Assembly (NCBI GenBank): GCA_011389745.1
Contig: JAABTQ010000002.1
Coordinates: 186,001-250,000, forward strand
Length of the DNA: 64,000 nt
Direction of reading: 5' to 3'
Source of the DNA: Desulfobacteraceae bacterium
GTDB lineage: Bacteria; Desulfobacterota; Desulfobacteria; Desulfobacterales; SKZT01
How positions within the stretch are numbered: position 1 is the first letter of the stretch; the number at the start of each line of letters is the position of its first letter. Positions 19,484-20,236 of the stretch are shown here, one piece after another. The notes under the pieces are model-generated. The model saw only the letters and a program-made list of their open reading frames with translations, searched no databases and had not been told where the DNA came from. The translations under genes were made by a program, and so were the position numbers.

Positions 19484-20236
19484 ATGAAATTAAAAAAATT
19501 GCTGGGATCTGCAATTCTGATATTTACACTGGTTTTTTTTAGCAATGTATTTGCGGAAAAACCCGAAGAAAAAACCAAATCTGAGGCATATTTTCCGGAA
19601 CAGACATTCACATTTGACAGGGTTTTAGAGGGAAGCCAGGTTATCCATGATTTTGTCATCAAAAATAAGGGAAATGGGCCTTTAGCAGTTGAAAGGGTTA
19701 AATCCTCCTGAGGTTGCGCGGCGGTCTCTTATACGAGACTCATTCCTCCGGATTCGGAAGGAAAAATTACAATCAAGGTCAACACCACGGGATATGGCGG
19801 AAAATTATTGAAAAAATCGGCAATAGTTGTCACCAATGATCCCAATACCCCTGAATTCGAGCTGACAATGCAGGGAGAGGTCGATGCTTTCGCAACCATT
19901 ACACCGGCTTACCTCAGACTATACGGTAATGCGGGTGAAAAAATTTCCGGTAAAGTGGTCATTTTGCTATCGGAAAAATATCCCTTCAATATCCTGGAGG
20001 CCAAAGCCCAGGACGGACAAAATATCAAATTCATCATTGAAAAGGATTTGAAAGGCAATGAACCGGGTTATACCCTGACCGTCGAAAATCTGATGGAACA
20101 AGAGGGACGATATTACGATACGATTCACCTCAAAACCGACAACAACATCAAACCGTTTATTACCGTCAAAGTTTACGGGAATATATTTGAAAAACCGGAT
20201 GACAAAAAAAAAACAAAACCGATCCAGAATAACTAA
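19484..20236 (+). CDS. DUF1573-family secreted protein; candidate selenoprotein with Sec encoded by TGA at 19709-19711
   Basis: ORFs 19484..19711 and 19808..20236 are the same frame, interrupted only by one TGA: ...HDFVIKNKGNGPLAVERVKSS[TGA]GCAAVSYTRLIPPDSEGKITIKVNTTGYGGKLLKKSAIVVTNDPNTPEFELTMQGEV. Signal peptide at N-terminus. Confidence 0.78.

What the first reader, a model, noticed from the sequence alone, without database searches (positions are those of the whole stretch)
19484..20236. Candidate selenoprotein: DUF1573-family protein with UGA at the conserved SCGC cysteine
Seen: two ORFs lie in the same frame, separated by a single TGA (19709-19711); 32 codons with no other stop join them and the sequence on both sides is one DUF1573-like domain. 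The TGA context is RVKSS-U-GCAAVSY. Known: DUF1573 domains typically carry a short S/A-S-C-G-C-T motif at this spot, so the TGA replaces the first Cys, giving a U-G-C redox-like motif. Secreted signal peptide is intact and downstream frame shows no decay. RNA hairpins follow: 19724-19739 (GTCTC-TTATAC-GAGAC, 12 nt after UGA) and 19745-19761 (CC-TCCG-GATT-CGGA-a-GG). I cannot say that either fits the bacterial SECIS consensus well: the first has no G early in its loop, the second has one but is about 39 nt away. Inference: a selenocysteine form of DUF1573, which I do not recall as an established selenoprotein family.
Basis: partly seen in the sequence, partly recalled or inferred. Interest (0 to 1): 0.9.

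Follow-up and report, generated by a model that had tools for sequence, protein, structure and literature searches.

The report
Selenoprotein with a two-hairpin selenocysteine signal
This gene really does use a UGA "stop" codon to insert selenocysteine, but it belongs to a selenoprotein family (OS_HP2/DUF1573) that is already catalogued; what appears new is that the RNA signal after the UGA is made of two conserved hairpins, not the single hairpin of the accepted bacterial model.

Summary
ATG 19484, in-frame TGA 19709-19711 and TAA 20234-20236 form one DUF1573 protein with U-G-C at the conserved C-G-C motif. The genome has SelA, SelB, tRNA-Sec(UCA), two SelD genes that each contain an in-frame TGA, and a formate-dehydrogenase-like gene with a TGA. 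Among 166 usable related loci the column is TGA in 141 and a Cys codon in 24-25, never another residue. The UGA is therefore selenocysteine. The family is not new: NCBIfam NF041425 ("OS_HP2 family (seleno)protein") hits over its cut-off, and reviews of 2022 and 2026 list DUF1573 "UGC" as a selenoprotein family, credited to a 2007 paper that I could not read.

What I could add concerns the RNA signal. In TGA-form genes synonymous codons are constrained from one codon before the UGA to codon +17, then abruptly not. This stretch holds two hairpins, at +13 to +32 and +35 to +52. Both are kept far above synonymous shuffles, covary, and are absent from Cys forms. Order-wide SelD genes show one hairpin only. 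The first hairpin usually lacks the loop G of the accepted model; the second has it, but 39 nt away (model 16-37). Which hairpin SelB reads is unknown. Function is inferred only: an exported redox site.

The parts
19484..20236 (+). OS_HP2/DUF1573 selenoprotein gene, 250 residues with UGA read as Sec76
   Evidence: PF07610; NF041425
19484..19555 (+). N-terminal hydrophobic segment (residues 1-24), probable signal peptide
   Evidence: Seen in translation; modelled as a helix, residues 3-22. No signal-peptide predictor was run
19592..19882 (+). DUF1573 Ig-like domain (residues 37-133)
19709..19711 (+). UGA codon read as selenocysteine, followed by G77 and invariant C78 (U-G-C)
   Evidence: 141 TGA and 24-25 Cys codons at this column in 166 loci
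19724..19739 (+). RNA hairpin 1 (GUCUC-UUAUAC-GAGAC), nt 15-30 counted from the U of UGA as 0 (13-32 in relatives); no loop G here
   Evidence: Pair probability in Sec forms 0.57 versus 0.04 in synonymous shuffles; covariation
19745..19761 (+). RNA hairpin 2 (CC-UCCG-GAUU-CGGA-A-GG), nt 36-52; first loop base is G at nt 42; bulge on the 3' side
   Evidence: Pair probability in Sec forms 0.62 versus 0.07 in synonymous shuffles; folded; pair 39-47 covariation
20199..20837 (+). HAD-family hydrolase whose start overlaps the end of the selenoprotein gene; conserved downstream neighbour
   Evidence: next gene downstream in 65 of 81 Sec-form loci

Best explanation
The gene encodes a probably exported selenoprotein of the known OS_HP2/DUF1573 family. 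SelB with Sec-tRNA(Sec) reads UGA 19709-19711 as selenocysteine, giving a U-G-C motif on an Ig-like domain. The signal in the mRNA is a two-part element in the coding sequence: hairpin 1 about 10-12 nt after the UGA and hairpin 2 immediately after it. Shown by computation: the UGA/Cys exchange, the complete Sec machinery, and RNA-level selection on both hairpins in Sec forms only. Inferred: hairpin 2, which has the loop G, is the part SelB grips, and hairpin 1 folds away the extra distance. Leaving hairpin 1 out, hairpin 2 starts about 12-16 nt from the UGA, near the roughly 11 nt of E. coli fdhF (my recollection). Also inferred: the U-G-C site does thiol/selenol redox or soft-metal chemistry in the periplasm.
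For: The column is TGA 141 times and Cys otherwise; C78 follows in every TGA form. Own genome: SelB, tRNA-Sec with TCA anticodon, SelA, two SelD each with one TGA, FdhA-like with TGA. Synonymous-codon constraint from codon -1 to +17 (z up to 8.6), gone at +18, absent from Cys forms. Hairpin pair probabilities 0.57 and 0.62 against 0.04 and 0.07 in synonymous shuffles; Cys forms 0.01 and 0.04. On 71 gap-free sequences covariation score 0.247 against 0.155 +/- 0.009 shuffled, 0 of 500 as high; sliding the pairing destroys it. When nt 39 is G, nt 47 (a free third codon base) is always C or U, 45 of 45; otherwise all four bases occur. In-frame insertions in L077 and L084 lengthen hairpin 1 or its loop and leave hairpin 2 intact. 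SelD from the same order, used as control, has one hairpin. NF041425 over cut-off.
Against: No protein, selenium or expression data. Pair counts and the 39/47 test are not corrected for shared ancestry. RNAalifold alone recovers only three pairs of hairpin 2, and the window sequence alone does not fold better than dinucleotide shuffles (z -0.89). G42 and G43 of hairpin 2 are also demanded by glycine codons, so their conservation is not proof of SelB contact. About a quarter of hairpin 1 loops do carry an early G (35 of 141), so hairpin 1 could be the SelB site.
Confidence: 0.93

Rival explanations
1. Hairpin 1 alone is the SECIS, with a relaxed loop that no longer needs G. Hairpin 2 has another role, such as pausing the ribosome.
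For: Hairpin 1 lies at the usual distance (17 nt to its loop; model 16-37) and has the clearer covariation. 35 of 141 loops have an early G.
Against: 106 of 141 hairpin 1 loops lack an early G, while SelD and FdhA-like genes of this genome keep G-containing loops, so the local SelB probably still wants one. Hairpin 2 is under equally strong synonymous constraint and also vanishes in Cys forms.
Confidence: 0.3
2. The TGA is a nonsense mutation or a sequencing error in a decaying gene.
For: The genome is a draft of 80 contigs and gene callers split or mistranslate such genes.
Against: The same codon at the same column in 141 distinct homologues, an intact downstream frame, and RNA-level selection that ends at codon +17.
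Confidence: 0.01
3. The UGA is read as tryptophan (genetic code change) or by generic readthrough.
For: Two JGI proteins (P0002, P0003) and P0016 carry W here, which looks like a gene caller's choice of code.
Against: No homologue has a Trp codon in this column; the alternative is always Cys. The Sec machinery is complete.
Confidence: 0.01
4. UGA is a regulated stop: a 75-residue exported fragment is the main product, with Sec readthrough when selenium is plentiful, also tuning the overlapping HAD gene.
For: The HAD start overlaps the end of the gene (20199 versus 20236) and HAD is the next gene downstream in 65 of 81 loci; UGA termination always competes with Sec insertion.
Against: The protein after the UGA is well conserved, like the part before it; nothing shows that the fragment is functional.
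Confidence: 0.08

Closest known systems
OS_HP2 family (seleno)protein, NCBIfam NF041425 (DUF1573 'UGC' selenoprotein, reported in 2007 from the Olavius algarvensis deltaproteobacterial symbiont according to PMC9312934)
   Same: Same domain, same U-G-C position, score over the curated cut-off (136.5 versus 100 bits).
   Different: Nothing at the protein level. The two-hairpin RNA signal did not turn up in the parts of the two reviews that I read; the 2007 paper was not available.
Canonical bacterial SECIS (bSECIS consensus in PMC13188914; SelD and FdhA-like genes of this genome)
   Same: Lies in the coding sequence just after the UGA; stem-loop; hairpin 2 has a loop beginning with G.
   Different: Two adjacent hairpins instead of one. 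The hairpin at the normal distance usually lacks the loop G; the one with the G is at 39 nt, outside the 16-37 nt rule.
PF07610 DUF1573 Cys-form proteins
   Same: Same domain with S-C-G-C in place of G/S-U-G-C.
   Different: Cys at the position and neither hairpin. Many lie in HdrA/FlpD/formate-dehydrogenase clusters instead of next to HAD and priA.

Membership tests
OS_HP2 family (seleno)protein, NF041425 | Score above the curated NCBIfam cut-off | tested here: met
   136.5 bits against 100
OS_HP2 family (seleno)protein, NF041425 | Sec (or Cys) at the first position of the U/C-G-C motif | tested here: met
   TGA codon 19709-19711; 141 TGA and 24-25 Cys in 166 loci
PF07610 DUF1573 | Domain match over the gathering score, running across the UGA | tested here: met
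   66.6 bits against 26.1, residues 37-133
Bacterial selenoprotein | Genome encodes SelA, SelB, SelC and SelD | tested here: met
Bacterial selenoprotein | RNA structure under selection after the UGA, in Sec forms only | tested here: met
Bacterial selenoprotein | Selenium in the purified protein | not testable with these tools
   Needs 75Se labelling or mass spectrometry
Canonical bSECIS model (PMC13188914 Fig. 2) | One hairpin with G in the first two loop positions, 16-37 nt after the UGA | tested here: not met
   Hairpin 1: right distance (17 nt), no G. Hairpin 2: G first, but 39 nt

The most novel reading that the evidence does not exclude
The OS_HP2 genes carry a distinct, bipartite class of bacterial SECIS: hairpin 1 occupies the usual SECIS position and folds away the intervening RNA, so that a second hairpin with the SelB-type G loop, 39 nt downstream in sequence, sits at the right distance in space. 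Both parts are needed for Sec insertion.
Probability: 0.4. Interest if true: 0.6.

Novelty: new member of a known kind. Interest (0 to 1): 0.4.

Why it matters
As a selenoprotein it is a further member of a catalogued family, so the first-stage claim of novelty falls. It shows how widely this poorly annotated family is spread in Desulfobacterales (a homologue in 181 of 199 genomes sampled, most with one TGA), while protein databases hold it as split or mistranslated pieces. The 2026 review says that some bacterial SECIS elements fail the accepted model and may form distinct classes; this family offers a large, clean, covariation-supported example with a matched Cys-form control, which makes that question directly testable.

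Tried and rejected
Rfam scan of 19600-19900: no match, even at E up to 5. RNAfold of the single window sequence: not significant, so the RNA case rests on comparison. RNAalifold inside Python gave an empty structure and was set aside; the tool version recovers three pairs only. A lower stem pairing the UGA region (nt 1-5) with nt 35-39 was considered, as CCCUC can pair with GAGGG on either side, and rejected: pair probability 0.018, the same as in shuffles. A Pyl (TAG) reading of the homologues listed with TAG/TAA was rejected: all 25 non-TGA codons at the column proper are Cys codons, apart from one misaligned row. Solved-structure sequence search: no relative. Fold search: Ig-like/HYDIN-type domains only, whole-chain TM-scores to the query below 0.5, so no functional clue. 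The 2007 source paper is not held.

Full report
OBSERVATION. With UGA as Sec the frame 19484-20236 gives a 250-residue protein: hydrophobic N-terminus, DUF1573 domain across the UGA (PF07610, 66.6 bits, cut-off 26.1), and a second beta domain. The motif is V-K-S-S-U-G-C-A. AlphaFold (33-row alignment, Sec given as Cys) is confident (mean pLDDT 88) and shows two beta domains, with Cys78 at the start of a strand and Sec76 in the turn before it. The best fold matches are ciliary HYDIN-type Ig domains and a Porphyromonas protein of unknown function (2qsv), with whole-chain TM-scores to the query below 0.5: an Ig-like scaffold, not a thioredoxin fold.

IS IT SELENOCYSTEINE? The genome (80 contigs, 99.9% complete) encodes tRNA-Sec with anticodon UCA, SelB (373 bits, cut-off 242), SelA (601 bits), two SelD genes each interrupted by one TGA, and a formate-dehydrogenase-like gene with one TGA. 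In the order, 181 of 199 sampled genomes have a homologue and most matches contain exactly one TGA; Sec forms also occur in other orders of the phylum. I mapped the codon at column 76 in all fetched loci: 141 TGA, 19 TGC, 6 TGT and one misaligned row; C78 follows in every TGA form. The tree of 165 proteins needs 13 changes between U and C, at least 6 of them forced by well-supported branches (quick method). Four Cys forms keep the HAD and/or priA neighbours (L097, L100, L102, L108), which looks like Sec/Cys exchange at the same locus. Genomes of three of these (G031, G050, G009) still have a TGA-containing SelD.

IT IS A KNOWN FAMILY. NCBIfam NF041425 'OS_HP2 family (seleno)protein' matches at 136.5 bits, cut-off 100. 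PMC9312934 (2022) and PMC13188914 (2026) list 'DUF1573 domain-containing protein, UGC' as a selenoprotein family; the 2022 review credits it to Zhang and Gladyshev 2007 on the Olavius algarvensis symbiont. That paper is not held here.

THE RNA SIGNAL. Numbering: U of UGA = 0. (i) In 136 Sec-form genes, synonymous codon choice departs from the gene's own background from codon -1 to codon +17 (z 4-9 at codons -1, +1, 5, 6, 8, 9, 11, 12, 13, 16 and 17) and returns to background exactly at codon +18; 24 Cys forms do not show the pattern. (ii) Two hairpins fill this stretch: hairpin 1 at nt 13-32 with a loop mostly UUAUAC-like, and hairpin 2 at nt 35-52 with a bulge on the 3' side and a loop beginning at G42. 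Mean pair probability is 0.57 and 0.62 in Sec forms, 0.04 and 0.07 in synonymous-codon shuffles of the same genes, and 0.01 and 0.04 in Cys forms. (iii) On 71 diverse gap-free sequences, 12 of 14 pairs show changes on both sides; covariation score 0.247 against 0.155 +/- 0.009 in shuffles (0 of 500 as high), and sliding the partners by 1 to 3 bases lowers cells paired from 80% to 34-54%. In hairpin 1, pair 16-29 is C-G 30 times, U-A 28 and U-G 11. In hairpin 2, when nt 39 is G (Ala codon) nt 47, a free glycine third base, is C 41 times and U 4 times and never A or G; when nt 39 is not G all four bases occur (Fisher p 7e-12, not corrected for ancestry). (iv) Homologues with an in-frame insertion between the UGA and hairpin 2 (L077, L084) take it up in hairpin 1 and keep hairpin 2. 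(v) Control: 30 SelD genes of the same order, treated identically, show one hairpin after the UGA with GGUC or G-rich loops, and constraint mainly at codons +5 to +12.

COMPARISON WITH THE ACCEPTED MODEL. PMC13188914 gives the bSECIS rule as a single stem-loop, G in the first two loop positions, 16-37 nt from the UGA, and adds that some genes fail it and may form distinct classes. Here hairpin 1 is at the right distance (17 nt), but 106 of 141 loops lack the G, the window gene among them. Hairpin 2 has G42 in 132 of 141, but its loop starts 39 nt from the UGA. My reading, an inference: hairpin 2 is gripped by SelB and hairpin 1 folds the spacer away, leaving about 12-16 unpaired nt. The glycine codons alone would also keep G42 and G43, so this needs an experiment.

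FUNCTION. No direct evidence. HAD hydrolase is the next gene downstream, on the same strand, in 65 of 81 Sec-form loci, and priA the next one upstream in 37 of 82. In the window the HAD gene overlaps the selenoprotein gene by 38 nt and upstream lies a TatD-family DNase. These look like housekeeping neighbours and give no pathway. A clade of nine Cys-form proteins lies largely in clusters with HdrA-like, FlpD/MvhD, formate-dehydrogenase-like and Fe-S-assembly proteins, which points to redox. An exported U-G-C thiol/selenol redox or soft-metal site is the most likely role (about 0.6 by my judgement), unproven.

VERDICT. A true selenoprotein, a further member of a known family; the two-hairpin signal is the part worth following.

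Noticed in passing
window 17713-18164: Two short ORFs (64 and 86 aa) that overlap at ATGA and read like one small protein split by a single-base frameshift near 17900.
   Followed up: partly
G000:C30:8096-9022 and G000:C45:101430-102350 (L207, L208): The genome has two SelD genes, each with one in-frame TGA and a G-containing hairpin just after it.
   Followed up: partly
proteins P0002-P0016: Protein databases hold this family as 142-residue C-terminal fragments or with Trp at the Sec position, so the Sec site is invisible to ordinary searches.
   Followed up: partly
L082, L085, L099, L101, L105, L106, L109, L116: Cys-form DUF1573 paralogues sit in clusters with HdrA-like, FlpD/MvhD, formate-dehydrogenase-like and Fe-S-assembly genes, suggesting a link to electron-transfer complexes.
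   Followed up: partly
hairpin 1 of 10 of 141 Sec-form genes: Hairpin 1 contains CTGTCTCTTATAC, which from memory is the start of the Tn5/Nextera adapter; adapter trimming could cut reads here and damage assemblies of this gene.
   Followed up: partly
L182 (G070): A Sec-form and a Cys-form copy lie side by side in one genome, apparently a local duplication with exchange.
   Followed up: no
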